Positions 22,961 through 45,439 of a DNA stretch of 64,000 nucleotides are shown in pieces. The position numbers were made by a program, and so were the translations under genes. The DNA is from Geitlerinema sp. BBD 1991-9. Lineage in GTDB: Bacteria > Cyanobacteriota > Cyanobacteriia > Cyanobacteriales > Geitlerinemataceae. The DNA is taken from assembly GCA_001657325.1 (NCBI GenBank), contig LWRO01000002.1, positions 160,285 to 224,284 on the forward strand, read 5' to 3'. The notes beneath the pieces were generated by a model. The model made no database searches. It saw nothing but the letters and a program-made list of their open reading frames with translations, and was not told the origin of the DNA. The stretch's first letter is position 1; every line of letters begins with the position of its first letter.

Positions 22961-22997
22961 ACTCTAAATCCGATAAGGGATTTTATCGGATTTAGAG
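22961..22997 (-). repeat. Terminal (trailer-end) repeat converted to a palindrome
   Basis: The outermost repeat keeps its 3' half (plus strand), but its other half is replaced by CTCTAAATCCGATAA, the exact inverse of TTATCGGATTTAGAG. It forms a 15-bp perfect stem (22962-22976 with 22983-22997) and a 6-nt loop. The ATTGAAAC handle is absent, so no normal final crRNA can be made. Confidence 0.9.
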
Positions 22998-23582
22998 GTC
23001 TTCGTCGTTCTGAGAAGAGTGCCAGAGGTAGGTTTCAATCCCTAGAAGGGATTTTATCGGATTTAGAGCTGCGGCGCTTCTTCGTTCCCGAGAAGTTGCG
23101 ATCGGACGGTTTCAATCCCTAGAAGGGATTTTATCGGATTTAGAGCTTCAATCGTTACGTCCCCCCCCCTCAGCTTCCACGAGTTTCAATCCCTAGAAGG
23201 GATTTTATCGGATTTAGAGCTGCCTTGATGGGGGACTCAAACGCCATCACCCGGTTTCAATCCCTAGAAGGGATTTTATCGGATTTAGAGCGGAGATGCT
23301 CGCCGTATTGGCTCTGCAAAACCGGTTTCAATCCCTAGAAGGGATTTTATCGGATTTAGAGAAGTCGAGCCCATTGTTGTTGAATGCACGGAGGAGGAGT
23401 TTCAATCCCTAGAAGGGATTTTATCGGATTTAGAGTCGAAAATCTCCGAATTCAGTTTTGATGATAAATTAGTAGTTTCAATCCCTAGAAGGGATTTTAT
23501 CGGATTTAGAGGTTACGTCAGAACTCCCAGATCGGCGCATTCAGGGTTTCAATCCCTAGAAGGGATTTTATCGGATTTAGAG

Positions 23583-23598
23583 TTTATCGGATTTAGAG
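23583..23598 (-). repeat. 16-nt partial repeat duplicated inside a spacer
   Basis: Directly after the repeat ending at 23582, TTTATCGGATTTAGAG is repeated once more, making an apparent 48-nt spacer. Likely slippage or imprecise repeat duplication. Confidence 0.9.
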
Positions 23599-26500
23599 CC
23601 GAGTGCCTCGCATTGTTCCAATATGTTCTGGTTTCAATCCCTAGAAGGGATTTTATCGGATTTAGAGTCCTTATCGACTTCTACCCCAAATCCCCACCCG
23701 TTTCAATCCCTAGAAGGGATTTTATCGGATTTAGAGCTGGGATAATCGGGGGCGGAAACCCGCAAAACAAGTTTCAATCCCTAGAAGGGATTTTATCGGA
23801 TTTAGAGTAAAGAAAAAAACCTCGAAACCTATGGGAACTAACGTTTCAATCCCTAGAAGGGATTTTATCGGATTTAGAGCTTGAGGTCGGCGAAAGGTAA
23901 ACGATCGCGAATCCCGGTTTCAATCCCTAGAAGGGATTTTATCGGATTTAGAGCCCCCTGATATCTTCCGTATCAGGGGGGTAAGGAGGTTTCAATCCCT
24001 AGAAGGGATTTTATCGGATTTAGAGACATCGGCACGTGACGGCGAAAAATATCTCAAACGTTTCAATCCCTAGAAGGGATTTTATCGGATTTAGAGCAGA
24101 CAACAATCGGCAATTTCCAGTCGAGGCAGATTTTCGTTTCAATCCCTAGAAGGGATTTTATCGGATTTAGAGAACAGTTGAGCTTCGACACCGAGTCAAT
24201 CGATCTGTCGTTTCAATCCCTAGAAGGGATTTTATCGGATTTAGAGGTTGTGTTCGGTGCAGCAACACTACACCGAACACGTTTCAATCCCTAGAAGGGA
24301 TTTTATCGGATTTAGAGTCTGATGCTGAACTTCAGGCCGAAATTCATGCGATGGTTTCAATCCCTAGAAGGGATTTTATCGGATTTAGAGGGCTCTAATC
24401 GAGTCTCATACCATCGCGCCAAATCCAAGTTTCAATCCCTAGAAGGGATTTTATCGGATTTAGAGACCTTCGATATGATGCTCGTCATCATGAAAGTTTC
24501 AATCCCTAGAAGGGATTTTATCGGATTTAGAGGGTCGGACGGACAAGCCAGTAGTCTCGCCCTCCTCGTTTCAATCCCTAGAAGGGATTTTATCGGATTT
24601 AGAGGCGTTGTTTCCAGCCTATCGCAGTTTGCAACAGATGTTTCAATCCCTAGAAGGGATTTTATCGGATTTAGAGCCCGTTGCTGAAGTCGGGCGCGAT
24701 GTAAGCCGCCCGTTTCAATCCCTAGAAGGGATTTTATCGGATTTAGAGTGCCCTTATTTCGCCTCCTACCACCGCTCTGCCACCATCCAGTTTCAATCCC
24801 TAGAAGGGATTTTATCGGATTTAGAGGGGGACAAAGAGCGGGTTCGGGATTACTGCTTTGTTTCAATCCCTAGAAGGGATTTTATCGGATTTAGAGATTC
24901 GCCAAATTCGCCACCTGTCACGGCATCACGGTTTCAATCCCTAGAAGGGATTTTATCGGATTTAGAGTCTTTATCACGCATGGATAAGTGACGATGTTCA
25001 CCGTTTCAATCCCTAGAAGGGATTTTATCGGATTTAGAGGAGGCATGGCGATCGTTGTACTGACCGATGGCGATTCGTTTCAATCCCTAGAAGGGATTTT
25101 ATCGGATTTAGAGGGGTCGGCCAGGATTGAGGTTTGCTTTCACCTCAAATTTGTTTCAATCCCTAGAAGGGATTTTATCGGATTTAGAGTCGGTTAGCGT
25201 TACGGCTCCATCCGCAGATTTCACCACGTTTCAATCCCTAGAAGGGATTTTATCGGATTTAGAGCTTCGAGGAAGATAAGATTTTCCAAGTCGATCTCCA
25301 GTTTCAATCCCTAGAAGGGATTTTATCGGATTTAGAGTCGAAGCCCTTGCCAAAGGGGCAGGCTTTGACCACCTGGAGGTTTCAATCCCTAGAAGGGATT
25401 TTATCGGATTTAGAGCAGTCTTTCACATGGCTATTACGCCAGCGATCGACGTTTCAATCCCTAGAAGGGATTTTATCGGATTTAGAGTTGCAAGCCTTGG
25501 CACTGGACCGGACGGGTACCGTTTCAATCCCTAGAAGGGATTTTATCGGATTTAGAGCTTCACACGGAAGCGGGTCTGAGGAGTCGCCAAGCTTCAGGTT
25601 TCAATCCCTAGAAGGGATTTTATCGGATTTAGAGAGTCAATACACAAATATAGTCTATGAACAGATTAAGTTTCAATCCCTAGAAGGGATTTTATCGGAT
25701 TTAGAGTCTAATTAGTTCTAAAGCTCTATTAGATCCTTTGGCGTTTCAATCCCTAGAAGGGATTTTATCGGATTTAGAGTATAATGGTCATCGGGAAAGA
25801 GTGCGGGTATAGCAAGTTTCAATCCCTAGAAGGAATTTTATCGGATTTAGAGTACTACTTCTTATGCTCTAGAGATTCAAAGAATCAAGTTTCAATCCCT
25901 AGAAGGGATTTTATCGGATTTAGAGTGTAACAGGGAAGAACAGCCGGATCAATAATGTAAAGATCCGTTTCAATCCCTAGAAGGGATTTTATCGGATTTA
26001 GAGTAATGCATGATTTTTGTATTAAGGTAATCTTTTCTGTTTCAATCCCTAGAAGGGATTTTATCGGATTTAGAGATAGAAGAGAGAGAGGAGATTTTAA
26101 AAGCTATTGTTTCAATCCCTAGAAGGGATTTTATCGGATTTAGAGCTTAATCCTATAGTTTCAAATGTTACGTTAAGCGCTATTCCGTTTCAATCCCTAG
26201 AAGGGATTTTATCGGATTTAGAGAGGCATTAAATACTTGAAAGGCTAAATAGCCTTGGTTTCAATCCCTAGAAGGGATTTTATCGGATTTAGAGGAAAAC
26301 TGGTTAAGAAATAATGGCTAAAGTTTTTGTTTCAATCCCTAGAAGGGATTTTATCGGATTTAGAGGATTTATTACTTACATCCCCGGCATCAGGCATATG
26401 GTTTCAATCCCTAGAAGGGATTTTATCGGATTTAGAGCTTAGGGGAGGCTAACTGAGATGACTAGATACGTTTTAGTTTCAATCCCTAGAAGGGATTTTA

Positions 26501-29500
26501 TCGGATTTAGAGTGCATTCGCCCAAGCTTGGGAATCACCGAAGTCGATGTTTCAATCCCTAGAAGGGATTTTATCGGATTTAGAGAACAAGCTTTCCTTA
26601 AGACTTTAGAAGATGCCCCTAGTTTCAATCCCTAGAAGGGATTTTATCGGATTTAGAGCTTATACGAAGGGGTATTGCAATCTTACAGAGGTTTCAATCC
26701 CTAGAAGGGATTTTATCGGATTTAGAGCAAAAGTCTTTACATTTCCAGAGAAATCTAATATGTTTCAATCCCTAGAAGGGATTTTATCGGATTTAGAGGC
26801 GAGTAAGCAGGTAAAGTTACCAGATTATGGAAATTTGTTTCAATCCCTAGAAGGGATTTTATCGGATTTAGAGGGGAGTTTCGGCAACGCCCCTGTCGAA
26901 GTTGTTCTTGGTGTTTCAATCCCTAGAAGGGATTTTATCGGATTTAGAGAGTGAATATTTGAAGCTTCCACCGTTGGAAAAAACTGTTTCAATCCCTAGA
27001 AGGGATTTTATCGGATTTAGAGGGGAACTAACTGGCGATACGCCGGGTACGAGCCGTTTCAATCCCTAGAAGGGATTTTATCGGATTTAGAGAGCATCTA
27101 CATAGTCAGATTGTGCGGTTAGGTACAGGTTTCAATCCCTAGAAGGGATTTTATCGGATTTAGAGTTTAGTTTTTATGTCCGGCTCATTAGTATCCTACT
27201 TGTTTCAATCCCTAGAAGGGATTTTATCGGATTTAGAGCCACCCTCATATATGGCCCGCCTGGTTCGGGGAAATCGTTTCAATCCCTAGAAGGGATTTTA
27301 TCGGATTTAGAGTCGCGATCTGTGACGAGGGTGTTGGGTTGAAATGGGTTTCAATCCCTAGAAGGGATTTTATCGGATTTAGAGTAAAGGTGAGCTATTA
27401 TAGTGTACCTTTCCACCCTGTTTCAATCCCTAGAAGGGATTTTATCGGATTTAGAGGATTAAAGCCATCACTATTATAAGCATTGAAAGTCTCGTTTCAA
27501 TCCCTAGAAGGGATTTTATCGGATTTAGAGTCAAAATCGTTGAAAGACTTTGCTGGTGGTAGTTTGTTTCAATCCCTAGAAGGGATTTTATCGGATTTAG
27601 AGATATATATTGGTAATCCGTCAGCGTCATTTACTTTGTTTCAATCCCTAGAAGGGATTTTATCGGATTTAGAGCCTTAAATTTTTTTGTGTTAAAATAG
27701 TTAATATATGTTTCAATCCCTAGAAGGGATTTTATCGGATTTAGAGTTAAGTCAACCTATAACTTCAGCACCTAAAATAAACCAGTTTCAATCCCTAGAA
27801 GGGATTTTATCGGATTTAGAGGTAAGATTTTGAGCTAATACCCTGTAAGTCTTAGAGTTTCAATCCCTAGAAGGGATTTTATCGGATTTAGAGATTTGGT
27901 TAGAATCGTTCTCGACGTAGTAAAATTTGTTTCAATCCCTAGAAGGGATTTTATCGGATTTAGAGATTAGAGCTAGTTGGTAAATCATCCAATCCACACA
28001 TCAGGTTTCAATCCCTAGAAGGGATTTTATCGGATTTAGAGGAAAGGCTCTTTTGCCCCTAAATCAGTCTTGTTTGTTGTTTCAATCCCTAGAAGGGATT
28101 TTATCGGATTTAGAGAAGTATAAGCATTTTTGGTATTGACACCTTAATCTCAGTTTCAATCCCTAGAAGGGATTTTATCGGATTTAGAGTAGATTCCACC
28201 ACTCGGGTAGTTTACAACAAATCTGTTTCAATCCCTAGAAGGGATTTTATCGGATTTAGAGTTTCTATAATTTTTGAGTTCTTTAGAATAATAATTTTTG
28301 TTTCAATCCCTAGAAGGGATTTTATCGGATTTAGAGAGTGCCGCACCAAATCCCCAAGGTTCACCAGAAAGTTTCAATCCCTAGAAGGGATTTTATCGGA
28401 TTTAGAGTCAGAAGCCGTTTGGCTCCCTTGGTGCCTTTCGCTTGGTTTCAATCCCTAGAAGGGATTTTATCGGATTTAGAGTTAATATCTATCGCGAAGC
28501 GATCGCACAATGCCTTAAATCTGTTTCAATCCCTAGAAGGGATTTTATCGGATTTAGAGCTCCAGCGGCAGAGGGTTGGCAATCGGTTCGTCAGTTTCAA
28601 TCCCTAGAAGGGATTTTATCGGATTTAGAGAATTCGGGGCTGTACTCCTCTAGCAGTAATCCTGGTTTCAATCCCTAGAAGGGATTTTATCGGATTTAGA
28701 GCTTTTAAGATTGGGTTCACGGCTACCCCTTACCGGTTTCAATCCCTAGAAGGGATTTTATCGGATTTAGAGACGAAGAAGTATCGCGCTGGGTGACGGG
28801 ATTTTGGGTTTCAATCCCTAGAAGGGATTTTATCGGATTTAGAGTTTGCCGCTCCAATTCCTCCAGCTTGCGTTGGAGTGCCAGGTTTCAATCCCTAGAA
28901 GGGATTTTATCGGATTTAGAGGTCTGCAAAGATGCACTCAGGGTTATTTACTAACTGGTTTCAATCCCTAGAAGGGATTTTATCGGATTTAGAGGATTGT
29001 ACAAAATCAACGGGAAGAATTAGAAAATAGAAGTTTCAATCCCTAGAAGGGATTTTATCGGATTTAGAGTTACTTTAATCAATCCCTCCCAATTACCTCC
29101 AATAGATGGTTTCAATCCCTAGAAGGGATTTTATCGGATTTAGAGTTTTGTCCGATTCGATCGAGAGACTCTTTTGCCTCCCGATCGACTGTTTCAATCC
29201 CTAGAAGGGATTTTATCGGATTTAGAGAAAATTCCTCCGATCGCCAAGCCGAAACCGACACCGTTTCAATCCCTAGAAGGGATTTTATCGGATTTAGAGT
29301 TGTGCTTCCGATTGTGGCTTCTTACTTACTTCAATCGCCTCGTTTCAATCCCTAGAAGGGATTTTATCGGATTTAGAGTTGACGGAAGGGTTGAAATCGC
29401 TAAAGGCGTCTGCGAGTTTCAATCCCTAGAAGGGATTTTATCGGATTTAGAGTCGATCTCCGTCACGCAAGGTATATCCATTTGTGAGTTTCAATCCCTA

Positions 29501-32500
29501 GAAGGGATTTTATCGGATTTAGAGTTTGTTTGGTACAGATTGATTATTAGAACCTGGGTTTCAATCCCTAGAAGGGATTTTATCGGATTTAGAGTTCATA
29601 GCCAGGCATGATTGACCAGAGTGATTTGCCATTGTTTCAATCCCTAGAAGGGATTTTATCGGATTTAGAGTCCTTTTCTACTCCACAATGTTGAATTAAA
29701 GTCTCGTTTCAATCCCTAGAAGGGATTTTATCGGATTTAGAGCCTTAAGAGAACTGCAATCTGGACACTTAAGTCCAGAGTTTCAATCCCTAGAAGGGAT
29801 TTTATCGGATTTAGAGTTTATTTGTTCATAAATTACATTAGTACTAAGGGTTGTTTCAATCCCTAGAAGGGATTTTATCGGATTTAGAGGAGGTCGTAAC
29901 TTATGATAGAATTCTAGATGAATATTTGTTTCAATCCCTAGAAGGGATTTTATCGGATTTAGAGCATCTTTATATCCGCTGGCAGCTTTGCCACCTAGAC
30001 CGGTTTCAATCCCTAGAAGGGATTTTATCGGATTTAGAGGTTCTGTCTGTTTTTGAAGCAGCCGCGATAAGAAGTTTCAATCCCTAGAAGGGATTTTATC
30101 GGATTTAGAGGTAGCAAAGGAAGCTTCCTTTGCTATCGAGACAAGTTTCAATCCCTAGAAGGGATTTTATCGGATTTAGAGGCAACGGGAAAAAGGAAAA
30201 ATGCAATCATCCCTAGTTTCAATCCCTAGAAGGGATTTTATCGGATTTAGAGCGGTTCTCGACGATCGCGGGTTCCCCCAGTTGCATGTTTCAATCCCTA
30301 GAAGGGATTTTATCGGATTTAGAGGAAAGAGGACTATCAGATCCTCTCCAACGGGCAACGGGTTTCAATCCCTAGAAGGGATTTTATCGGATTTAGAGTC
30401 CACGCCGTCCAGCTCCCCACGGTGGCTGTAAATCCGTTTCAATCCCTAGAAGGGATTTTATCGGATTTAGAGTTGATGCTTGAGTGCGAAATTTTCTATC
30501 CCTTTGAGTTTCAATCCCTAGAAGGGATTTTATCGGATTTAGAGGTTATAGGGACGACGACTTATCCGAGGACTGGAAGTTTCAATCCCTAGAAGGGATT
30601 TTATCGGATTTAGAGTGCAAAGTGCGATTGGCTGTGGGAGGCAATTCAAGTTTCAATCCCTAGAAGGGATTTTATCGGATTTAGAGCTTATTGGTATCAG
30701 CGAGCTAGGTTGGCTCTCACTGATTTGGTTTCAATCCCTAGAAGGGATTTTATCGGATTTAGAGTCTGTTACCCAATTTGGAGCGGGATCGAGGACGATC
30801 TCGTTTCAATCCCTAGAAGGGATTTTATCGGATTTAGAGCCGTACCATAGAGATAGCGCGATCGAGGCAAAACTCGTTTCAATCCCTAGAAGGGATTTTA
30901 TCGGATTTAGAGGCCGAGTTGAAGGCGATCGCCGCCAAACTGATGGGTTTCAATCCCTAGAAGGGATTTTATCGGATTTAGAGTCGAACACGGGCAAGGC
31001 AGCCCCCTCAACGTCTTCGTTTCAATCCCTAGAAGGGATTTTATCGGATTTAGAGGAGAAGAAGTTCGTCACGGGCGGCGCAGTTGGCGAGACTGTTTCA
31101 ATCCCTAGAAGGGATTTTATCGGATTTAGAGACCAACAGACGGAGCCACGCCAGACACCCCAGACGGAGTTTCAATCCCTAGAAGGGATTTTATCGGATT
31201 TAGAGGGATAAAGGACAGATGAATATCGATAACTTTCTTGTTTCAATCCCTAGAAGGGATTTTATCGGATTTAGAGTCTAAAAATACATCCCACCAGTGA
31301 CCGAAATCAAGTTTCAATCCCTAGAAGGGATTTTATCGGATTTAGAGCCAGCGCCGTGGCGCTTGCCCCCGTGTCCGTTAGTTTCAATCCCTAGAAGGGA
31401 TTTTATCGGATTTAGAGCTTTGCTATCGCTGTAGAGCAAGCAAAGGATACGGTTTCAATCCCTAGAAGGGATTTTATCGGATTTAGAGGAAGGTAACGCT
31501 CGGCCGGGGCGATTGTTTTGGCTCGGTTTCAATCCCTAGAAGGGATTTTATCGGATTTAGAGTTGTAGGTAAACACACTCCTCAATCAGATCTAGGATCT
31601 GTTTCAATCCCTAGAAGGGATTTTATCGGATTTAGAGTTGGAACAACTTGGGGACTAGAAATCATTGGATTAGGTAAGTTTCAATCCCTAGAAGGGATTT
31701 TATCGGATTTAGAGTTAAAGTCCCCCATCCTAGAACTGGAAATTAAGGTTTCAATCCCTAGAAGGGATTTTATCGGATTTAGAGGAGAAACAAATACCCA
31801 ATTTAAGGGCGCAAGTTGCTCAGGTTTCAATCCCTAGAAGGGATTTTATCGGATTTAGAGCTGAAGGTTATGCACCTTATTATGTTAGGTACGGAGTATT
31901 TGTTTCAATCCCTAGAAGGGATTTTATCGGATTTAGAGTCGGAATGATACTCGTCAAGCCTTCCTGTCCCGTGTTTCAATCCCTAGAAGGGATTTTATCG
32001 GATTTAGAGTTGATTCAAAGAATCATTTACGGTAGTATCAAAGGTTTCAATCCCTAGAAGGGATTTTATCGGATTTAGAGGGGTTCAAGCTTTAGAGTAC
32101 ATTCTCAAGTCTGCTACCGTTTCAATCCCTAGAAGGGATTTTATCGGATTTAGAGACGAGATTTTCATTAAATTTTATAATGGAGATATTTTCTTAGTTT
32201 CAATCCCTAGAAGGGATTTTATCGGATTTAGAGATATTTTCGATTAGTTCATACATCGCTAAATTCAGATGGTTTCAATCCCTAGAAGGGATTTTATCGG
32301 ATTTAGAGGGAGATATGTGGAGTGATTTAATCCACGCCCACATCGTTTCAATCCCTAGAAGGGATTTTATCGGATTTAGAGTTTGCGAATGAGACTACGG
32401 GTTTCATGGTAGATAGTTTCAATCCCTAGAAGGGATTTTATCGGATTTAGAGTCTGCCCCGATCTGGAGGGGTATCTTTTAGAGAATCCAGTTTCAATCC

Positions 32501-35500
32501 CTAGAAGGGATTTTATCGGATTTAGAGTTCTACGCCTCCACCCCGTCGTCGGAAAACTACGCCAAATTCGTTTCAATCCCTAGAAGGGATTTTATCGGAT
32601 TTAGAGCTCAAAAGTTTTATCTGAGAGAGGGGAGCCTTTTGTTTCAATCCCTAGAAGGGATTTTATCGGATTTAGAGGGAAATTGGCTTCGGGGAACCAG
32701 CAGACAACACTGTTTCAATCCCTAGAAGGGATTTTATCGGATTTAGAGTAACCTATTTAAAAGAGGATGATTAATATGATGTTTCAATCCCTAGAAGGGA
32801 TTTTATCGGATTTAGAGGCTTAACAAAGCCATCTAAGTTAGTAGTGTCTTTGTAAGAGTTTCAATCCCTAGAAGGGATTTTATCGGATTTAGAGATTGAT
32901 GGCTGTTCCGACTATAGATAGGTCGTAGTTATCTAAGTTTCAATCCCTAGAAGGGATTTTATCGGATTTAGAGTTGAAACTGAATCTTATAGGTTCACAG
33001 GAAATTATGTTTCAATCCCTAGAAGGGATTTTATCGGATTTAGAGTCGGTAAGACCCATCCTCGAAAAGTTCAAGTGCGTGTTTCAATCCCTAGAAGGGA
33101 TTTTATCGGATTTAGAGTATGCCTGGATGGACAGCCCGTATTGCACGCACTTCTGTTTCAATCCCTAGAAGGGATTTTATCGGATTTAGAGGATGAGCCA
33201 CTAGATAGTCCATATTAGCTAGAAAAGTTTCAATCCCTAGAAGGGATTTTATCGGATTTAGAGTCGTTTTTACCTCAATGCTATTGAGGAGATGGATTGT
33301 GTTTCAATCCCTAGAAGGGATTTTATCGGATTTAGAGGTATCCCTAGATCTCGTTAATCTAGGTGATGTCAGTTTCAATCCCTAGAAGGGATTTTATCGG
33401 ATTTAGAGGATGGAGAAGAAATTTACTCTGCATCGTTCGCAGGGGTTTCAATCCCTAGAAGGGATTTTATCGGATTTAGAGTAGATGTAGAGAATCTTAT
33501 AGCCCAAACTTAAAAATAGTTTCAATCCCTAGAAGGGATTTTATCGGATTTAGAGTTAGACGCGAGGCAATGTAGAATATGCGATAAAAACTAGTTGTTT
33601 CAATCCCTAGAAGGGATTTTATCGGATTTAGAGAGCTGTTACGACAACGCTATTGAGGAGATGGATTGTGTTTCAATCCCTAGAAGGGATTTTATCGGAT
33701 TTAGAGTGGCGATCGATTTCGTCAAAGTAGCGATCGTATTCGTCTTGGCTGTTTCAATCCCTAGAAGGGATTTTATCGGATTTAGAGCTCACGCCAGCGA
33801 TTGGGAGGCGGGGGGGACGATCGTTTCAATCCCTAGAAGGGATTTTATCGGATTTAGAGCGGGTACGACTTCGGTTCGTATTCGTAGTCGTCGGGGTTTC
33901 AATCCCTAGAAGGGATTTTATCGGATTTAGAGAATAGAGGGTTCTATACGACCATTAGCTACTTATAGAGTTTCAATCCCTAGAAGGGATTTTATCGGAT
34001 TTAGAGATATTGACGCCCCTTAGAAATATTGGGGTTTTCAAGTCTGTTTCAATCCCTAGAAGGGATTTTATCGGATTTAGAGGAGCTAGTCGGTAAATCA
34101 TCTAAACCACACATCAGGTTTCAATCCCTAGAAGGGATTTTATCGGATTTAGAGATATAGAAGAGGGTAAAAAGAAGGCTAGAAGGTTAGGTGTTTCAAT
34201 CCCTAGAAGGGATTTTATCGGATTTAGAGCTCTTAAGGTTAAATGAATCTACACTGAGGGAGGTTTTGTTTCAATCCCTAGAAGGGATTTTATCGGATTT
34301 AGAGCTCAGCCAATCTTAGTGTCTCAGCTCGTTTAGATTCAGTTTCAATCCCTAGAAGGGATTTTATCGGATTTAGAGATATTTTTACATCACATCCACT
34401 CGAACATATTCTCGTTTCAATCCCTAGAAGGGATTTTATCGGATTTAGAGTGGAAAATAGATGAAATGGATTGATTCCTCCTGGGTTTCAATCCCTAGAA
34501 GGGATTTTATCGGATTTAGAGCTTAGATCAGTTGAGGGGGTATGTTATAGCCTCAGGTTTCAATCCCTAGAAGGGATTTTATCGGATTTAGAGGAAGAAT
34601 CAATGGCAGATTCCACGATATGACTTTGGGTTTCAATCCCTAGAAGGGATTTTATCGGATTTAGAGGACCTGAATCTAGATCTTCAAAATTGCTAGACCA
34701 CACAGTTTCAATCCCTAGAAGGGATTTTATCGGATTTAGAGAAGCACCGATCCTATGCACGGTAAAGTTACCAGGGGGTTTCAATCCCTAGAAGGGATTT
34801 TATCGGATTTAGAGGCGGCTATAAAGGAGGTTCGTCCGAACCTCCTTTATTGTTTCAATCCCTAGAAGGGATTTTATCGGATTTAGAGTTATTGTTTTCT
34901 ATCTTATAAAACTACTTGATCTAAGTTTCAATCCCTAGAAGGGATTTTATCGGATTTAGAGATGTCGTAGCATTAGCCAAATTAGACGCTTCTAAGTTTC
35001 AATCCCTAGAAGGGATTTTATCGGATTTAGAGCTCAATATTAGTGTAATTGCAATCACGCACTCATTGTTTCAATCCCTAGAAGGGATTTTATCGGATTT
35101 AGAGTCGCCAACAGCGCCGGAGGGATGCCGTTCTTCTCGGTTTCAATCCCTAGAAGGGATTTTATCGGATTTAGAGTATGCGGTATCGTTGGTGTCGTTG
35201 ACTTCTATGGCGTTTCAATCCCTAGAAGGGATTTTATCGGATTTAGAGGAGGGACTAGATCCTCTACATGGTGAGGTCGTTTTGGGGTTTCAATCCCTAG
35301 AAGGGATTTTATCGGATTTAGAGAAGTTTAACACCAACAGGTAGTAAAAAAGGTATTGAAAGTTTCAATCCCTAGAAGGGATTTTATCGGATTTAGAGAT
35401 TAACAGAATCTTTCATTTCCTCAGTTACATTTCCACCTTGTGTTTCAATCCCTAGAAGGGATTTTATCGGATTTAGAGTCTTAATTCTATAGAGATTTGT

Positions 35501-38500
35501 TAGCCAATGCCAAAAAATTGTTTCAATCCCTAGAAGGGATTTTATCGGATTTAGAGGATTGAATTAATCGAAAAAAGCAAGGATTTGGGGGTTTCAATCC
35601 CTAGAAGGGATTTTATCGGATTTAGAGTTTTCTCTGTATCTAAGTCAGAAGTCGTAAAAGTTGAAAAAGTTTCAATCCCTAGAAGGGATTTTATCGGATT
35701 TAGAGTAGGTAAATTTTCATTTTTTTTCTTCCATTGACTAGATTCAATATGTTTCAATCCCTAGAAGGGATTTTATCGGATTTAGAGCCTGAAAATATTA
35801 CGGCCGTTGCTACAGGTAAATCGTTTCAATCCCTAGAAGGGATTTTATCGGATTTAGAGCTGAGGAAGATATTTATAATGCCATAGACAAGTGGAACGAG
35901 TTTCAATCCCTAGAAGGGATTTTATCGGATTTAGAGGTGGAAAAGCAAGTACCGGGGTCAGTGGAGATCAGTTTCAATCCCTAGAAGGGATTTTATCGGA
36001 TTTAGAGGAGAATAGGACTCATGCGTCCTTTAGCCAATTGAGGACTAAGTTTCAATCCCTAGAAGGGATTTTATCGGATTTAGAGCTGAAGACAAATTAG
36101 ATAATATTAGTCAGACAAAGTTTCAATCCCTAGAAGGGATTTTATCGGATTTAGAGGATACGGTGACAAACTTGGCGGCGGCTACCGGGGGAACCGTTTC
36201 AATCCCTAGAAGGGATTTTATCGGATTTAGAGCTGTGAAGCATCCTAGCCATCATGGAAACCTGTTAGCAGAGTTTCAATCCCTAGAAGGGATTTTATCG
36301 GATTTAGAGGGTGGCGTCCTTCCCATCCCTGTAAGGCTGTAGGGTGGTTTCAATCCCTAGAAGGGATTTTATCGGATTTAGAGTTGCCGGATTGTCCGCC
36401 CCTCTACCCGCGCTCGTGTTTCAATCCCTAGAAGGGATTTTATCGGATTTAGAGTTAAAATCTATACCCAAAAACTTAACTATGGATCAGGTAGTGTTTC
36501 AATCCCTAGAAGGGATTTTATCGGATTTAGAGTTTCTGCCGCCCTCGATGCCGAACTGGAGATCCTCGAAGGTTTCAATCCCTAGAAGGGATTTTATCGG
36601 ATTTAGAGTTTAGAATTTACCGAAGCTGATTACAAAGAGTTAAGAGAAGTTTCAATCCCTAGAAGGGATTTTATCGGATTTAGAGGGAAAAATGTGTAAC
36701 TATTTCCCACAAATGGCTGAGTTTCAATCCCTAGAAGGGATTTTATCGGATTTAGAGTGCCAGGAGAGGATCTCCTCTCCGTTTTTAAAGATAGGTTTCA
36801 ATCCCTAGAAGGGATTTTATCGGATTTAGAGGGGAAATATCCCTCTGTCCACAAGATCCCGCACGTTTCAATCCCTAGAAGGGATTTTATCGGATTTAGA
36901 GAGTAGCTTTCGCGTCGGATGGTGCCGAAGCGATCGGTTTCAATCCCTAGAAGGGATTTTATCGGATTTAGAGATGTTTTGTTATCCGAGTCATAATCAA
37001 ACAACATAGGTTTCAATCCCTAGAAGGGATTTTATCGGATTTAGAGAGGAAGAAGTCGAAACGCTGGGGCGACTAATTCACGTTTCAATCCCTAGAAGGG
37101 ATTTTATCGGATTTAGAGGTACACCAACCCCGGATCGTCGGCGAACAGCAAGGTTTCAATCCCTAGAAGGGATTTTATCGGATTTAGAGTTTCTCTATTT
37201 TTAATTTTTAGTTAACGGTTGAATAGGTTTCAATCCCTAGAAGGGATTTTATCGGATTTAGAGCCCAGGGGTTCGAGTCGCCATCGAAAATCATGAATAT
37301 TGTTTCAATCCCTAGAAGGGATTTTATCGGATTTAGAGGCCGGAAAGGTTTTTGGCGGTGGCACATCTAGCAATGAGTTTCAATCCCTAGAAGGGATTTT
37401 ATCGGATTTAGAGGGAACGAAAGCGTACCAACAGGCGCGCGAGGAATTCGTTTCAATCCCTAGAAGGGATTTTATCGGATTTAGAGTTAGACTTCCAAAA
37501 AAAAGTCTAACAAAAAGTCTGTTTCAATCCCTAGAAGGGATTTTATCGGATTTAGAGAGCTTTCTCGCGACCTGGGCGCAAGTCAACCCTCGGTTTCAAT
37601 CCCTAGAAGGGATTTTATCGGATTTAGAGATTAATCGCGATGTCCGTATATTGGCGTGAGTATTCGCGTTTCAATCCCTAGAAGGGATTTTATCGGATTT
37701 AGAGAATATGGTCAGCTCGACCATATCTCCCGTGTCATGGTTTCAATCCCTAGAAGGGATTTTATCGGATTTAGAGAATAGGAATCCCTCCACTCTCTGA
37801 TGAGGAATGGGATGTTTCAATCCCTAGAAGGGATTTTATCGGATTTAGAGCCTACTGAGACACAATTAGAATTCTTATACTCTAAATTCTCAGTTTCAAT
37901 CCCTAGAAGGGATTTTATCGGATTTAGAGTTTAGATCTAAATCGTAATAAGGAGAGGGCTGAAGTTTCAATCCCTAGAAGGGATTTTATCGGATTTAGAG
38001 CATTTTTCTTTCTCCCATCGATTAGAATAAATATGTTTCAATCCCTAGAAGGGATTTTATCGGATTTAGAGTAGTTACCAGGGGGGCAGAATCCTACTCG
38101 TGGAAGTTTCAATCCCTAGAAGGGATTTTATCGGATTTAGAGCTGTGCAAGGTAAATTTGCATGAGGATCTCCTTCACAGTTTCAATCCCTAGAAGGGAT
38201 TTTATCGGATTTAGAGTAGAGCTACCATGGTGTTTATGTCTCCTATTTAGACTCTGGTTTCAATCCCTAGAAGGGATTTTATCGGATTTAGAGACCATTA
38301 TGAGGAGGGTTCCTCATATGAACTCAAGGTTTCAATCCCTAGAAGGGATTTTATCGGATTTAGAGACATTCAAAATCATCATAGGTTTGATTTTTAATCG
38401 TTTCAATCCCTAGAAGGGATTTTATCGGATTTAGAGCTCAAAATTAACCGATAATCCAAAGCTTATAGAAGTTTCAATCCCTAGAAGGGATTTTATCGGA

Positions 38501-41500
38501 TTTAGAGACTAGTCCGCCAATATTCTATAATGCAGTAGTTTTCGTTTCAATCCCTAGAAGGGATTTTATCGGATTTAGAGCCCAGTAGCCATCGGGGTTC
38601 GGTGTTAGAGGTACAAGTTTCAATCCCTAGAAGGGATTTTATCGGATTTAGAGTAGTGTGACTTCTTCTTCGTTACCACACTGATGGGGTATATTTGTTT
38701 CAATCCCTAGAAGGGATTTTATCGGATTTAGAGTTTACCTTGGGGAAACGACAATATGATGACCCCAGAAGTTTCAATCCCTAGAAGGGATTTTATCGGA
38801 TTTAGAGCTTCACCCTCTCCCGCAGTCGCGAAATCTAATCGCTTCCCTAAAGCTTCAAGTTTCAATCCCTAGAAGGGATTTTATCGGATTTAGAGTTTAA
38901 AGATTCTTCTATTTCTGCTTTTATTCTCTGTTTCAATCCCTAGAAGGGATTTTATCGGATTTAGAGTTGGAAGCCCCGTCGCTTTAGCGCGGGGATTGGT
39001 TACACAACTTGTCAGATAGTTTCAATCCCTAGAAGGGATTTTATCGGATTTAGAGTGTAAACCCAGTTGTGCCAAAATTGGTTCCGGTTTCAATCCCTAG
39101 AAGGGATTTTATCGGATTTAGAGATTCTGGCGGATTGACATAGGCATTGCTACTGCACGTTTCAATCCCTAGAAGGGATTTTATCGGATTTAGAGCATTG
39201 CCCAAAGCGTTCGGCGTCTGTTCGGCGGTTTCAATCCCTAGAAGGGATTTTATCGGATTTAGAGGAGGGTGTGGAGAGTCACGCTGAGCGCCTCGTCGAT
39301 GTTTCAATCCCTAGAAGGGATTTTATCGGATTTAGAGTGGAGGGGAGGTGGTAGTACCTCCCCGGTTGTGTTAGTTTCAATCCCTAGAAGGGATTTTATC
39401 GGATTTAGAGGCTACTCGTCCTCGCCGTCTTCGAGCCACAACTCGTTTCAATCCCTAGAAGGGATTTTATCGGATTTAGAGTCCAGATTTTGGGCGATAC
39501 TCGGAGGAAGTAGGCGCGGTTTCAATCCCTAGAAGGGATTTTATCGGATTTAGAGTGTATAATGGATACAAACAGACACAGCAGAACCTGTTTCAATCCC
39601 TAGAAGGGATTTTATCGGATTTAGAGCTTATTATCAAAATTAGAATCGGGGCAAAGAAATCTGTTTCAATCCCTAGAAGGGATTTTATCGGATTTAGAGG
39701 TAAGATAAGATGCCCGAAATCACAAATCCTCGCGCTGTGTTTCAATCCCTAGAAGGGATTTTATCGGATTTAGAGCGGCGTTCCGATCGAAGGCGATCGT
39801 CGTTGCATCGAGTTTCAATCCCTAGAAGGGATTTTATCGGATTTAGAGGCATTCGTTGCAAGGTTCTCCATCAATTGGGTTCAGTTTCAATCCCTAGAAG
39901 GGATTTTATCGGATTTAGAGATTCATTTAATTAAATCGTAATACCTATAGAAAATGTTTCAATCCCTAGAAGGGATTTTATCGGATTTAGAGACTCCTTT
40001 ACTTAAGAGGTAATCTGATAATTGGTGTTTCAATCCCTAGAAGGGATTTTATCGGATTTAGAGCTGAGTTGCCGTAATTGAATTTGTGTGCCGATTATAA
40101 GTGTTTCAATCCCTAGAAGGGATTTTATCGGATTTAGAGTTGTGGCATTCGTTGCAAGGTTCTCCATCAATTGGGTTCAGTTTCAATCCCTAGAAGGGAT
40201 TTTATCGGATTTAGAGATTATTGGGACGATACAGATTGGATCTAATTTTTGGTTTCAATCCCTAGAAGGGATTTTATCGGATTTAGAGTAAAGAGGATCT
40301 ATATTGGGTACAGAAAGAAAAAGGTTTCAATCCCTAGAAGGGATTTTATCGGATTTAGAGGTTAAATTTTTCGGTTTTGAATGTGGCATGAAGGAGTTTC
40401 AATCCCTAGAAGGGATTTTATCGGATTTAGAGTTTACGCCAAGGACGTAAACTAGTTTTAGCCGCTGTTTCAATCCCTAGAAGGGATTTTATCGGATTTA
40501 GAGCGGCGTCAGGCATATGTACCAGTGTCTGTGGATTGAACGTTTCAATCCCTAGAAGGGATTTTATCGGATTTAGAGTCGGACACAGATTAAAGAACAT
40601 GAGGCCTCAATGGTTTCAATCCCTAGAAGGGATTTTATCGGATTTAGAGGGGCTTGGCTAGCATCCTCGGGAGTTGTCGTCACTCAGGTTTCAATCCCTA
40701 GAAGGGATTTTATCGGATTTAGAGTCGGCTCCGTCAAGTTAGCCCGATCGCGCTTCGACATGTTTCAATCCCTAGAAGGGATTTTATCGGATTTAGAGTT
40801 TGGCAAAGGCATCCCGCGCCTCTTGAGTGTTGAGTTTCAATCCCTAGAAGGGATTTTATCGGATTTAGAGTTGTCAGTGTTCCACCCGGATAAGTATAAA
40901 CTAAGTTTCAATCCCTAGAAGGGATTTTATCGGATTTAGAGTTTAAAAGGCTTTGGTGGTGTTAGTAACCCCGTTGGTCTAAGTTTCAATCCCTAGAAGG
41001 GATTTTATCGGATTTAGAGATTTTTGCAAGAGTGCCTTCCTGTCTTAGTCCTCGTTTCAATCCCTAGAAGGGATTTTATCGGATTTAGAGGCTGATTTAA
41101 TTTAGGCTTTAGATCGTCTAATTCGATTTCAAGTTTCAATCCCTAGAAGGGATTTTATCGGATTTAGAGGGTTCCGCCCATGCCTTTGGCGTACTCCGTC
41201 CAGTAAGGGTTTCAATCCCTAGAAGGGATTTTATCGGATTTAGAGATTAGATCCCGGTAGGCCAGCTACAAAAGTACTGAGTTTCAATCCCTAGAAGGGA
41301 TTTTATCGGATTTAGAGATAGTAGGGTTAGGATCCACTTACTATGGCTTCCGTTTCAATCCCTAGAAGGGATTTTATCGGATTTAGAGGAAGAAAAATTC
41401 TTTAGTTTTTACTTTAGGTTCCTTAGGTTTCAATCCCTAGAAGGGATTTTATCGGATTTAGAGGTGGTGATTTTCGGGTGGATCTTTCACCCTATCGAGG

Positions 41501-42127
41501 TTTCAATCCCTAGAAGGGATTTTATCGGATTTAGAGTTGTCGTACCTTCAGATAATTGTGATTGACGACTTTTGACGTTTCAATCCCTAGAAGGGATTTT
41601 ATCGGATTTAGAGCATATATTTTAAATATCGACACTTTACTTTTGAGTTAGGTTTCAATCCCTAGAAGGGATTTTATCGGATTTAGAGGCTATGAGCCGG
41701 ACATCCAGCCTGGTGTACCTGATGAGTTTCAATCCCTAGAAGGGATTTTATCGGATTTAGAGCCCAATTCTACTAATTCTCTAATAGAAGCACTTTTGTT
41801 TCAATCCCTAGAAGGGATTTTATCGGATTTAGAGATATCAGGTTCCCCCTCCACGGTCTACTCTTGCCCGTTTCAATCCCTAGAAGGGATTTTATCGGAT
41901 TTAGAGGATAGCCCAATTCTACTAATTCTCTAATAGAAGCACTTTTGTTTCAATCCCTAGAAGGGATTTTATCGGATTTAGAGTTATTGGATTAGGTAGT
42001 ACAAAAGTAGCTAGAAGGTTTCAATCCCTAGAAGGGATTTTATCGGATTTAGAGAATAGTAGCCATATAAAACTATAAAATAAAAATTACGTTTCAATCC
42101 CTAGAAGGGATTTTATCGGATTTAGAG

Positions 42128-42391
42128 TCCTCCCACTTGAAACCTTGTTCCTATACAGTTTTCAAGGTGCAGTTGCGCGTATCTCCCCAACAATAACATC
42201 GATCGATCTGAAAACACAACCTTCAAACCCACTGCAAATCTCGAAAACCCTTATCACCAAAGCATTTCAGAAGTTGCGCGGATCGCCTTCTCAGATCGAT
42301 CGACCGAAACCCAGACTCCATCAGCCATCCAGCCCATTTTGCGCCGTTTCCCGTCCCAACACCCACCCCACCGCGCAAAATCCAACGAAAC
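42128..42391 (-). promoter_or_regulatory. CRISPR leader
   Basis: 264 bp of non-coding sequence between the cas2 stop and the newest repeat, on the upstream side for minus-strand transcription. Adjacent to the repeat is an imperfect inverted repeat, CACTTGAAACC (42134-42144) and GTTTTCAAGGTG (42158-42169), a candidate adaptation-complex anchor. The distal part is C/A-rich on the plus strand. A plus-strand frame across it is not credible. Confidence 0.75.
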
Positions 42392-42667
42392 TCAACAGAA
42401 AAACACCGTCGTATCTATCGGTGGCGGACAGCCAATTCGCTCAACCGTTCCGTGATTCTTCCCGCGCAAAAAGTAAAACAGAATGTTGTCCGTCTCGGGT
42501 TGAATCAACTTCTGCAACCGCCGCCGCAAACGGGCGTATTGTGTATCCGTCAGATCGCACTCGAACACACTGTACTGCATCCACTGACCGTAAGACTTCA
42601 ACACCTTATGAATCTTCGTGCGGCGTTTGTCTTCAGAGACATCGTAACAAACCACGACGTGCATCAT
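42392..42667 (-). CDS. cas2: Cas2
   Basis: 91 residues (or 90 from the second ATG at 42664). Starts MHVVVCYDVSEDKRRTKIHK with the conserved Asp after the first beta strand, then WMQYSVFECDLT. Structural partner of Cas1 in the spacer-integration complex. Last gene of the operon before the leader. Confidence 0.97.
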   Translation of the reverse strand: MMHVVVCYDVSEDKRRTKIHKVLKSYGQWMQYSVFECDLTDTQYARLRRRLQKLIQPETDNILFYFLRGKNHGTVERIGCPPPIDTTVFFC

Positions 42668-42800: not shown

Positions 42801-43805
42801 CTAACGCAACACCAACGGTGGATATTTATCCGTTTCGCCCATCAAAAACTTCGCCAACAGTCGCGCCTGAATTTCAAACGCCTTTCGATACGTACACTTG
42901 CGCCCCATGACGGGATGCTTAAACTCCGATTGTTTCTTCTCTTCGTAAGCCCGCAAAAACACTTTCAATCCGTCCGAAGTCAACGAAACCGCCCCACTGA
43001 CAGGTTCTGTCTCGAAGTCTCCAGGAGTTAACAGGCGTTTGTTCGCCATCGCCAACGCCACCGCATCCACAACCAACGGACGAAATTCCTCCATGACATC
43101 CAACGCCAGGGACGGCCGACCGTATTGTTCGGTGTGAAGATAACCTAAGTAGGGATCGAATCCGACGATGTTCAACGCACTTTGAATGTCGTGGCGCAAA
43201 AGGGCGTAACCGAGGCTGAGTAGGGAATTGATGGGGTCGAGAGGCGGACGGCGATTGCGATGGGTAAAGCGAAAATCGTTACCGCGCACCAATTGACCGA
43301 AACAGCCGAAATACGTGGCACTTCCCGCCCCTTCATAGCCTCGCAATCGATCGATCTCTCGAACTTTTGGTAATGCAGCGATCGATCGATTGAGTTGTTC
43401 GATCGATTCCGTTAAAGTCAAATCGTCGTTTTCTCGTTGTTTGCGTTGCAACAAGCTGCGGTAATTTTTCAACTTTCCGCGAACGAATCCCCGAACAGCA
43501 TCGATCGATGTTTGGGTTTCTCCCGCCGCCCCCCACTGGGCCCGACGGACGAAAATATTGCGCGTGACTTCGGGTTCTAAGCGGCCTCGATAGCGTCCGT
43601 AGCGAGTGATGAAACTCAGGGGAATGTTGCGTTCTAGCAATTCCTCGACCACCGCCGGAGACACCGTCGCCCGTCCGAAGATTACCACGCCGTCAATTTT
43701 AATCAACGGTACATCCAGCAATCGATCGCGCTGGTACTTCACACTCAACCGTTCGTCTACTTTACCCAAAAACGCATCTTCTTGGGTGACATACACCGTT
43801 CCCAC
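42801..43805 (-). CDS. cas1: Cas1 integrase (type I-D)
   Basis: 334 residues. Catalytic Glu158 in LRGYEGAGSATYF, His224 in GYLHTEQYGRPSLALD and the acidic residue in VMEEFRP are all present. N-terminal beta domain begins MGTVYVTQEDAFLG. Start is GTG at 43805 with AAGGAG about 8 nt upstream. Forms the adaptation complex with Cas2, assisted by Cas4. Confidence 0.97.
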   Translation of the reverse strand: MGTVYVTQEDAFLGKVDERLSVKYQRDRLLDVPLIKIDGVVIFGRATVSPAVVEELLERNIPLSFITRYGRYRGRLEPEVTRNIFVRRAQWGAAGETQTSIDAVRGFVRGKLKNYRSLLQRKQRENDDLTLTESIEQLNRSIAALPKVREIDRLRGYEGAGSATYFGCFGQLVRGNDFRFTHRNRRPPLDPINSLLSLGYALLRHDIQSALNIVGFDPYLGYLHTEQYGRPSLALDVMEEFRPLVVDAVALAMANKRLLTPGDFETEPVSGAVSLTSDGLKVFLRAYEEKKQSEFKHPVMGRKCTYRKAFEIQARLLAKFLMGETDKYPPLVLR

Positions 43806-43950: not shown

Positions 43951-44556
43951 TCATGCTTCTCGGTATCGCGCCACTTTCGCCACTGCTTGCGGTAAGCAAC
44001 CGTCGTACAAACTACAGCCGCGACAGCGTTTTTCGTAAACGGCTGGGGGCATTTCTCCGGTTTGCAACATCTGGCGAACGGCTTCGAGGATTTCGACGGT
44101 TTTCCGACGCAATGTTTCATCGAATAAGATTTCCTGTCGCTGGTGCGATTGCAATGAATAAACGTAACCCTTCGCGATCGAACTTCCCGTCATTTCTTCC
44201 AAACACAACCCCTGGGCGCACACCTGCAAAGCGTCGTTGTCCCAAGGATTGCGCCGCCCTCGCTTGTATTCCACTGGGTAAATTTCTCCCGCTTGCGACT
44301 CCACGAGATCGGCTTTTCCGACGAGTCCGTAACGTTCGGATTTCAACCAGATCGATCGAACTTGCCACGTTTCATCGCGAAATCCTTCACCGAGGGTATG
44401 GACTCGATCGTGTAATGTCGTCCCTTCGATGGTGTAGGCGTTATCAACAAATTCTCCCGCACAAAACATCCGCCAGCAACGGTGAGGACAATAGGCGAAA
44501 TGATTCAGCGAGGCGATCGCAACTTCAGTCAAAGTGTCAACTAGAGGTTCAGTCAT
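43951..44556 (-). CDS. cas4: Cas4 exonuclease
   Basis: 201 residues. RecB-like nuclease core: GTTLHDRVHT, VGKADLVES and YPVEYKRGRR (D-ExK). Iron-sulfur cysteines: one in FAYCPHRCW near the N-terminus and a C-terminal CRGCSLYDGC. Cas4 trims prespacers and helps choose PAM-containing ones, which bears on the PAM-end sharing of spacer pairs. It is followed by a 145-bp gap to cas1. Confidence 0.95.
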   Translation of the reverse strand: MTEPLVDTLTEVAIASLNHFAYCPHRCWRMFCAGEFVDNAYTIEGTTLHDRVHTLGEGFRDETWQVRSIWLKSERYGLVGKADLVESQAGEIYPVEYKRGRRNPWDNDALQVCAQGLCLEEMTGSSIAKGYVYSLQSHQRQEILFDETLRRKTVEILEAVRQMLQTGEMPPAVYEKRCRGCSLYDGCLPQAVAKVARYREA

Positions 44557-44581: not shown

Positions 44582-45439
44582 TTATCGGGCATTTTTCCGT
44601 GCTACCCCCATTCCCATCGTAGTTTTTCGTCCGATTCCCGAATACACAGCGTAGTCCGCGAGAGCATTCAACGTTTGAATCGTTGCAGGCGAAACATCTC
44701 CTAAAATGCGATAGTCGATCGTTCCCACAGCACCGATAAACTTGCCAGATTTTCCCTTTTTCCGAAAATCAAAATCGACGATTTCTGTGTGTACGTTGAA
44801 ATAGCAGGGAAATACCGATTCAGTCGAAAATTCAGGTAGTTCGATGTCGCTATATTTGTTCCAAGAGTTCAGTAAACTTTTAAACACGGAGTCTTGGGTG
44901 GGTAAAGCCGTATCGTATTTTTGCTGTCGAAATGCTACAGGGGTGGCTAACTGAAATGAAATCCGACGGTTGCTATCCGATGCATTTTCGTAAAGTTCGG
45001 CGTAAGATGCAGCATTTGCCCAAGGTTGCGTCGATTGTGGCGTTCCGAGGATGCTGGTGATATGTAAATTTGCCGCACCTAAGTGCCAAGGTTGTCCTGA
45101 ATTCAAATTCAGCCAAAGGTGAGAAAGTTTTCCGAAAAGACTATCGTCGAGAAGAGAAACGCGCCACCAGCAAGAAGTTTCGGGTTGGATGGGATAGCGA
45201 TGTTGAAATTGCAGGATAGACGGAACGGGGGAACGTCGATCGCGGTGAGAATGGCGGACGGCTTGTAGCGGTGAGAGGGTGAATGCTTTGTCGGTTTTGG
45301 CTTCGTGAAGATGACTCGCTAGTTGGGGATCTACGGCGTTGACAGCAGTAAGAAAGAGGGCGTGAAGATGTCTTCCAGTTGCGTATTCGGGATAGATTGG
45401 GGTTTCGGGGACGAAGTTGAAAACAAGACTGTGAGGCAT
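44582..45439 (-). CDS. cas6: Cas6 crRNA endonuclease
   Basis: 285 residues. RAMP fold with the C-terminal glycine-rich loop YSGIGRKTTMGMGVAR and a preceding GTVGTIDYRILGD strand. Expected to cut in the repeat 8 nt before the spacer. Its start lies 3 bp after the cas5 stop, indicating tight coupling. Confidence 0.93.
   Translation of the reverse strand: MPHSLVFNFVPETPIYPEYATGRHLHALFLTAVNAVDPQLASHLHEAKTDKAFTLSPLQAVRHSHRDRRSPVPSILQFQHRYPIQPETSCWWRVSLLDDSLFGKLSHLWLNLNSGQPWHLGAANLHITSILGTPQSTQPWANAASYAELYENASDSNRRISFQLATPVAFRQQKYDTALPTQDSVFKSLLNSWNKYSDIELPEFSTESVFPCYFNVHTEIVDFDFRKKGKSGKFIGAVGTIDYRILGDVSPATIQTLNALADYAVYSGIGRKTTMGMGVARKNAR

What the first reader, a model, noticed from the sequence alone, without database searches (positions are those of the whole stretch)
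22961..42127. Single 19.2-kb CRISPR array with about 261 nearly invariant repeats
The hand count of repeat starts gives 261, with no consecutive gap above 90 nt. Only one point change (25834) was noticed outside the terminal repeat and one partial duplication. Such length with so little decay implies active acquisition and effective repeat homogenisation, or little deletion by recombination. It is a deep infection record for one strain.
Basis: seen in the sequence. Interest (0 to 1): 0.75.

Follow-up and report, generated by a model that had tools for sequence, protein, structure and literature searches.

The report
Published 260-spacer CRISPR array, plus mini-CRISPR
The long CRISPR array is real and intact, but it matches an array published in 2016 from a coral-disease cyanobacterium; the fresher find is a small stray CRISPR unit in the neighbouring immune genes that looks like a guide RNA for switching genes off.

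Summary
The array spans 22961-42127 (19,167 bp) and holds 261 repeats of 37 nt: 259 exact, one with a change at 25834, one degenerate terminal repeat. Its 260 spacers are all distinct. It belongs to a complete type I-D CRISPR-Cas locus on the minus strand, so the right end is the new end (inferred). Assembly expansion is unlikely: the longest exact repeat inside is 76 bp, and the published assembly used k up to 92. It is already in print: Buerger et al. 2016 list for Geitlerinema sp. BBD_1991 a type I-D array of 19,166 bp, 37-bp repeat, 260 spacers, and other arrays of this genome match that table. No protospacer was found. More interesting is an antisense mini-CRISPR between cas3d and cas10d (51941-52031), whose guide seed matches PAM-flanked sites 70-100 bp away. 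Across 44 such elements the sites recover the known I-D PAM (GTN, 44 of 52) and the free sixth base (31 of 39 single mismatches). It fits a CreR/CreA-type regulator; whether the I-D case is in print I could not establish.

The parts
22961..42127 (-). Type I-D CRISPR array: 261 repeats of 37 nt, 260 spacers; crRNA strand is minus, newest spacers at the right end
   Evidence: orientation inferred from cas operon strand, terminal repeat at left, shared handle-side ends of repeated spacers
22961..22997 (-). Degenerate leader-distal terminal repeat; its left half is an inverted copy of its right half
   Evidence: 8 mismatches; inverted half seen by eye
25816..25852 (-). Only internal repeat with a substitution (25834)
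23583..23630 (-). Spacer 252 (48 nt); its + strand start is a 16-nt tandem copy of the repeat end
41763..41946 (-). Spacers 3 and 5 (spacer 4 lies between): same 35 nt from the handle side, lengths 40 and 35 (repeated acquisition)
39849..40179 (-). Spacers 27 and 31 (28-30 lie between): same 35 nt from the handle side, lengths 40 and 35
42128..42391 (-). Presumed leader between cas2 and first repeat
   Evidence: position only; no sigma-70-like match found
42392..42667 (-). cas2
   Evidence: Pfam CRISPR_Cas2, PADLOC Cas2d
42801..43805 (-). cas1
43951..44556 (-). cas4
   Evidence: Cas4d best
44582..45439 (-). cas6
   Evidence: Cas6d best
45443..46153 (-). cas5d/csc1
46253..47254 (-). cas7d/csc2
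47360..50857 (-). cas10d/csc3 large subunit
50841..50978 (-). 46-aa remnant similar to a DUF1016/YhcG-type nuclease
   Evidence: 27 of 48 identical to an L082 protein
51022..51450 (-). MNT-type nucleotidyltransferase (only 164 bp to cas10d, no room for a HEPN partner there)
51566..51850 (-). Small helix-turn-helix protein (94-aa ORF; conserved core about 65 aa)
   Evidence: PADLOC HTH PDLC01152; no Pfam match
51851..51862 (-). Candidate Cascade site A: PAM GTT + 9-nt seed match GAATAAGTC
51879..51890 (-). Candidate Cascade site B: PAM GTC + GAATACGTC (mismatch at position 6 only)
   Evidence: coordinates read
51941..51963 (+). Ectopic pseudo-repeat 1: matches the 3' end of the crRNA-sense repeat, hairpin plus 8-nt handle ATTGAAAC
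51964..52012 (+). Pseudo-spacer (guide) of the mini-CRISPR
52013..52031 (+). Ectopic pseudo-repeat 2 (hairpin without the full handle)
52035..54302 (-). cas3d helicase
54364..55230 (+). WYL-domain regulator, divergent from the cas operon
   Evidence: PADLOC WYL 2e-11; Pfam below cut-off

Best explanation
[quoted passage not shown] BBD_1991, already described in 2016. New spacers enter at the right end next to the leader and cas2 (inferred). Each insertion copies the leader-end repeat, so the repeats stay near-identical without any homogenising process. The array is long because acquisition has outrun deletion (inferred). Pre-crRNA is cut by Cas6 and used by I-D Cascade with Cas3d against GTN-flanked DNA (from knowledge of the family; no protospacer found here). 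Next to it, between cas3d and cas10d, a mini-CRISPR on the opposite strand probably makes a crRNA-like RNA. By a 9-nt seed this would park Cascade on the region upstream of a small HTH gene, an MNT gene and cas10d, and repress it (inferred from sequence statistics).
For: Count, spacing and distinct spacers. All I-D genes on the minus strand, ending at the array. Publication: Buerger 2016 (PMC5177637), Table 2, section 13 read whole, '1 + Cas I-D ... 19166 ... 37 ... 260'. The own genome also holds 101 repeats over 7,341 bp and 164 repeats (by my cut-off) over 12,149 bp, as in the same table's array 2 (7,340 bp, 100 spacers) and arrays 3+4 (12,148 bp from the printed starts and lengths; 101 and 62 spacers). 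Expansion unlikely: no 80-mer occurs twice in the array, longest internal repeat 76 bp; assembly used PE100 reads with k up to 92. Spacer lengths peak at 34-35 nt, close to the 35 nt reported for I-D. Mini-CRISPR.
Against: No protospacer found, so function against phages is untested here. The spacers were not compared letter by letter with the published contig; identity rests on array lengths, counts and type. Published mean spacer length is 37.6; mine is 36.6 ((19,167-261x37)/260). A collapse of identical stretches longer than about 92 bp would be invisible in a short-read assembly. No transcript evidence for array or mini-CRISPR. The mini-CRISPR is not found where cas3 and cas10d abut (Synechocystis 6803, PCC 7002), and 15 of 44 elements show no GTN-flanked seed site.
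Confidence: 0.95

Rival explanations
1. The length is an assembly artefact: repeat units were multiplied by the assembler.
For: Short-read assembly of a mixed culture (passages).
Against: All 260 spacers distinct; longest internal exact repeat 76 bp, no repeated 80-mer; no N in the window. The same count in print rests on what is probably the same assembly, so it is not independent of it.
Confidence: 0.02
2. The array is kept uniform by gene conversion between repeats rather than by copying of the leader repeat.
For: One substitution in 260 full repeats.
Against: Copying at acquisition already predicts uniform repeats; the single variant repeat (between spacers 221 and 222) did not spread to neighbours, and the terminal repeat stayed degenerate.
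Confidence: 0.1
3. The mini-CRISPR is not a guide: its start is only a copy of a palindromic operator (AAG-n6-CTT) bound by a protein such as the WYL regulator, and the promoter holds further copies.
For: 9 of 44 guides contain AAG-n6-CTT in their first 22 nt, and some target sites share it.
Against: 35 of 44 guides lack that palindrome. The matching sites carry GT at the PAM place although the pseudo-spacer is preceded by the handle end (AAAC in the window); GTN appears only in the register that starts right after the 8-nt handle (44 sites, against 0-1 at each of 20 other offsets); single mismatches sit at position 6 (22 of 25 distinct); non-palindromic guides (L088, L090, L116) match too.
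Confidence: 0.12
4. The mini-CRISPR is a CreA-type antitoxin that keeps the HEPN-MNT or nuclease cargo silent, rather than a regulator of cas genes.
For: Of 42 loci with the element between cas3d and cas10d, 25 have MNT, 21 HEPN, 19 DUF1016 and 17 the small HTH in that interval; 35 have at least one of the first three.
Against: In this window no HEPN gene fits and the nuclease is a 46-aa remnant, yet the element and both sites remain; cas10d lies downstream of the same region.
Confidence: 0.4

Closest known systems
Geitlerinema sp. BBD_1991 CRISPR array 1 (Buerger et al. 2016, PMC5177637; section 13 read whole, other passages by find)
   Same: 19,166 bp, 37-bp repeat, 260 spacers, type I-D; other array lengths of the genome match too
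   Different: No difference found in length, repeat size, count or type; mean spacer length printed as 37.6 against 36.6 here; spacer letters not compared
Longest arrays, e.g. Haliangium ochraceum DSM 14365, 587 spacers (CRISPRCasdb paper PMC7145573, passages)
   Same: Very long single array
   Different: More than twice as many spacers; the present array is no record
Type I-D systems of Synechocystis 6803 (review PMC10212523, passages; locus L124)
   Same: Same gene set, WYL regulator, spacer length about 35 nt
   Different: In 6803 cas3 and cas10d abut: no cargo and no mini-CRISPR found between them
CreA / CreR crRNA-like regulators (PMC9458426, PMC8501985, PMC12737573; starts of abstracts and passages)
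   Same: One or two degenerate ectopic repeats, partial match between guide and a nearby promoter region
   Different: Subtype I-D; small HTH plus HEPN-MNT or YhcG-type nuclease cargo; transcript and repression not shown here. NAR 2023 gkad495 on CRISPR-derived regulatory RNAs is recalled, not held, and may already list I-D cases

Membership tests
Type I-D CRISPR-Cas | cas10d, cas3 helicase, csc2, csc1, cas6 together | tested here: met
Type I-D CRISPR-Cas | Adaptation genes cas1, cas2, cas4 | tested here: met
Type I-D CRISPR-Cas | Array of conserved repeats with unique spacers next to the operon | tested here: met
Type I-D CRISPR-Cas | GTN PAM at protospacers of the array | tested here: inconclusive
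   no protospacer found; one weak chromosomal match to spacer 242 lacks GTN
Type I-D CRISPR-Cas | Cas6 processing to crRNA | not testable with these tools
   needs RNA data
CreA/CreR regulatory mini-CRISPR | Ectopic degenerate repeats flanking one spacer-like stretch in the cas locus | tested here: met
   window. Relatives: first element in 43 of 80 loci plus the window, 42 of these 44 between cas3d end and cas10d; second hairpin in 23 of 44
CreA/CreR regulatory mini-CRISPR | PAM-flanked partial (seed) match close by, not a full match | tested here: met
   window; relatives: 29 of 44 loci, the window included
CreA/CreR regulatory mini-CRISPR | Match lies in an active promoter | tested here: inconclusive
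   only weak sigma-70-like matches
CreA/CreR regulatory mini-CRISPR | RNA is made and represses with Cascade | not testable with these tools
   needs RNA-seq and reporter assays
CreTA/CrePA (toxin under Cascade control) | A toxin gene under the targeted promoter | tested here: inconclusive
   HEPN in the interval of 21 of 42 loci, not in the window

The most novel reading that the evidence does not exclude
Many cyanobacterial type I-D operons carry, between cas3d and cas10d and antisense to them, a conserved mini-CRISPR whose RNA guides I-D Cascade by seed pairing to one or two GTN-flanked sites about 60-160 bp away. It represses a small HTH gene with HEPN-MNT and/or YhcG-type nuclease cargo and probably cas10d, so that loss or blocking of Cascade, or a flood of crRNAs from a long array, switches the cargo and the effector genes on.
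Probability: 0.7. Interest if true: 0.6.

Novelty: already known. Interest (0 to 1): 0.4.

Why it matters
The array itself adds little: its length, repeat size and spacer count were printed in 2016. What this check adds is its direction, evidence against assembly expansion, repeated uptake of the same protospacers, and a change in spacer GC near the old end. If the mini-CRISPR reading holds, type I-D joins the systems in which Cascade is also a gene regulator. That would extend RNA-guided control to a toxin-antitoxin and nuclease cargo, and give a way for effector supply to follow crRNA load in genomes with very long arrays. A 2025 review (PMC12737573, passages) lists as open whether such coupling exists in other CRISPR types with other toxins.

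Tried and rejected
Spacer targets. 'phages': whole array in three distant-mode queries; one match only, E 0.06, judged chance. 'plasmids': whole array, near mode, none; leader-proximal 7.6 kb, distant mode, three records at 68-74% identity, taken by me as other arrays' repeats and not checked one by one; the rest of the array was not run in that mode. Viral contigs: four degenerate cores standing for spacers 3/5, 115/120, 109/192 and 27/31, i.e. 8 of 260 spacers, 0 hits.

Self-targeting: the array against its own genome gave 14 matches: itself, other arrays, pseudo-repeat 1, two small matches inside the array, and one weak hit on C85 (E 0.008). That hit pairs with spacer 242 (27 of 30), in an ORF that looks like a response regulator, preceded by TTC and not GTN, so I do not call it a target.

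Matches of 14 nt between spacers (100/208, 137/221) were taken as chance or palindromes.

Mini-CRISPR results against my reading. The loci were the best 80 of 154 relatives. 37 of 80 gave no element by my pattern; 15 of 44 elements have no GTN-flanked seed site; 2 of 44 elements (L061, L065) do not lie between cas3d and cas10d. The other-strand control was not clean: 8 elements scored 8. In one search, 7 of these 8 also have an opposite-strand site (L087 does not), and I read them as second sites, not noise. Of seven plasmid loci looked at later (L120-L126), two have elements, and one of those two has a seed site (GTC, same strand, 251 nt away, beyond the 200 nt used before). Only 23 of 44 elements show a second repeat-like hairpin. 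Rows dropped: 18 of 62 hits as the second of a pair. My first cargo table covered 38 of 44 loci, six being left out by hand; redid it for all 42 that lie between the two genes, and its numbers are the ones used. The 44 elements are related by descent; on distinct combinations the counts are 31 of 38 with GTN, and 22 of 25 single mismatches at position 6; 16 of 28 distinct seeds have a GTN site.

Literature on a type I-D mini-CRISPR: the searches showed none among the rows listed (most lists were capped, e.g. 25 of 470 and 12 of 33); the most relevant paper is not held.
Full report
What is there. The window holds one CRISPR array at 22961-42127: 261 repeats of 37 nt, of which 259 are exact, one has a single substitution (25834) and one, at the left end, is degenerate. 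The whole genome has the same number of exact copies, 259, so none lies elsewhere. The 260 spacers are 30-52 nt (median 36) and all distinct; lengths peak at 34 and 35 nt.

Which way it runs. The genes right of the array are on the minus strand: cas3d, cas10d, csc2, csc1, cas6, cas4, cas1, cas2, in that order towards the array. This is a complete type I-D locus. The presumed leader is therefore 42128-42391, and the degenerate repeat at 22961 is the old, leader-distal end. On the minus strand the repeat ends in ATTGAAAC, the handle. Spacers 3 and 5, and 27 and 31, share their first 35 nt at the handle side and differ only in length at the other side. In type I systems the handle side is the PAM side (established knowledge), and the I-D review says that the non-PAM end is trimmed by an unknown nuclease (PMC10212523, passages). 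So these look like repeated captures at one PAM, the first pair very near the leader. Spacers 109 and 192 (32 of 35 identical) and 115 and 120 (first 21 nt identical) look like captures from related elements.

Is the length real. No 80-mer occurs twice in the array and the longest internal exact repeat is 76 bp. The published assembly used PE100 reads and k up to 92 (PMC4918915, passages). Expansion by the assembler is thus very unlikely; collapse of identical stretches longer than that cannot be excluded.

It is already published. Buerger et al. 2016 (PMC5177637; section 13 read whole) list for Geitlerinema sp. BBD_1991 'array 1 + Cas I-D', 19166 bp, DR 37, 260 spacers, and in the abstract speak of extraordinarily long arrays of up to 260 spacers. 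I tested the genome's identity on other arrays. Contig C80 has 101 repeats over 7,341 bp (table: 7,340 bp, 100 spacers). Contig C89 has 164 repeats by my cut-off over 12,149 bp (table: two arrays with 101 and 62 spacers, spanning 12,148 bp by their printed starts and lengths). The relative with the highest Csc2 identity in the named collection is Baaleninema simplex PCC 7105, 92% over residues 1-288 (that tool says the own genome may be left out), consistent with Den Uyl et al., who place BBD 1991 close to PCC 7105 (passages). The organism name rests on these matches, not on a name given by a tool, and the spacers were not compared letter by letter. The array is not a record: 587 spacers are reported for Haliangium ochraceum (PMC7145573, passages).

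Why the repeats are so uniform. Each acquisition copies the leader-end repeat, so uniformity is the default; one substitution in 260 copies needs no homogenising process. The variant repeat between spacers 221 and 222 is surrounded by normal repeats, so it changed in place. I cannot measure deletion with one strain. One unexpected trend: the 36 oldest spacers have mean GC 0.527 against 0.428 for the 224 newer ones, a break not reached in 500 permutations. The source of captured DNA may have changed.

What it targets. Nothing convincing was found. The whole array against 50,697 phage records gave one match at E 0.06; plasmids gave nothing in near mode and three low-identity, array-like matches for the leader-proximal part in distant mode; four viral-contig scans covering 8 of 260 spacers gave none. 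Buerger et al. report about 95% unknown targets and no self-targeting in this genome. My self-search gave one weak match without a GTN PAM. 'Deep infection record' therefore remains an inference from what CRISPR spacers generally are.

A second CRISPR-like element. Between cas3d and cas10d, on the opposite strand, lie AAATCCCTTCTAGGGATTGAAAC (51941-51963, matching the 3' end of the repeat), 49 nt of unrelated sequence, and a second hairpin (52013-52031); each hairpin folds as a 7-bp stem on its own. The first 9 nt after the handle recur once elsewhere in the window, at 51859-51851 on the minus strand, preceded by GTT. A second site, 51887-51879, preceded by GTC, differs only at base 6.

Test across relatives. 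In the best 80 of 154 type I-D loci found by Csc2 plus the window, a pattern for isolated hairpin-plus-handle elements on the antisense strand gave 44 first elements in 44 loci; 42 of these lie between the end of cas3d and cas10d. Within 25-200 bp upstream of each guide I asked, without demanding any PAM or mismatch place, for sites matching guide bases 1-9 with at most one mismatch. There were 52; letter-shuffled guides gave 2.4 per round. Of the 52, 44 are preceded by GTN, and 31 of 39 single mismatches fall on base 6. The I-D PAM is GTN (GTH in Microcystis), and in type I the seed must pair except at base 6 (PMC10212523, passages). GTN sites occur almost only when the guide is read right after the 8-nt handle: 44 at offset 0, against 0 or 1 at each of 20 other offsets. 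Counting distinct combinations only, 31 of 38 have GTN and 22 of 25 single mismatches are at base 6. By locus, 29 of 44 have a GTN-flanked site, at 60-156 nt; 15 do not. This is what RNA-guided Cascade binding predicts; a shared protein operator would not predict the PAM or base 6, and only 9 of 44 guides carry the palindrome such an operator would need.

What it may control. Between the element and cas10d, the 42 loci hold a small HTH protein (17), an MNT nucleotidyltransferase (25), a HEPN/HepT protein (21) and a DUF1016/YhcG-type nuclease (19); 35 have at least one of the last three (families). In the window the HTH and MNT remain, the nuclease is a 46-aa remnant and no HEPN gene fits. Candidate roles are CreR-like autorepression of cas10d, or CreA-like silencing of the cargo. 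I cannot decide between them, and the window argues slightly for the first. In Synechocystis 6803 and PCC 7002 cas3 and cas10d abut and no element was found between them.

Known or not. [quoted passage not shown] Among the rows listed by my searches I found no paper on a type I-D case (lists mostly capped), and the most relevant paper (NAR 2023, gkad495; recalled) is not held. So I rate the array 'already known', and the mini-CRISPR, taken alone, a new member of a known kind that may already be listed.

Noticed in passing
window 51941-52031 (+), sites 51851-51862 and 51879-51890 (-): Antisense mini-CRISPR between cas3d and cas10d with two PAM-flanked seed sites; an element at this place in 41 of 80 related I-D loci and the window.
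   Followed up: yes
L069, L070, L073, L083, L086: In these relatives two seed sites lie head to head on opposite strands with their PAMs back to back (L105 faces likewise but further apart, L065 sites overlap); in eight loci including the window the sites are tandem, 26-33 bp apart. Meaning unknown.
   Followed up: partly
window 22998-25597 against 25635-42090: The 36 oldest spacers are clearly richer in GC (0.527 against 0.428).
   Followed up: partly
window 22961-22997: The terminal repeat is, by eye, an inverted duplication of its own right half, not simply mutated.
   Followed up: no
window 22719-22743: By eye, CTTCAATTCCCCAAAGGAATTGATG left of the array resembles a decayed repeat.
   Followed up: no
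window 61425-62771 (-) with 62728-62953 (-): IscB-like protein (RRXRR + HNH) with a HEARO RNA (Rfam RF02033).
   Followed up: no
G000 C80 and C89 (L118, L119): Other arrays of the genome use a near-identical repeat (GTCTAAATCCGATAAAATCCCTTTTAGGGATTGAAAC); a few spacers share 20-23 nt (one mismatch) with stretches of those loci.
   Followed up: partly
G000 C97:79484-96835: Three Cas1-family matches within 17 kb, the genome having six in all.
   Followed up: no
window 56572-58761 (-): Large DUF5682 protein beyond the CRISPR locus.
   Followed up: no
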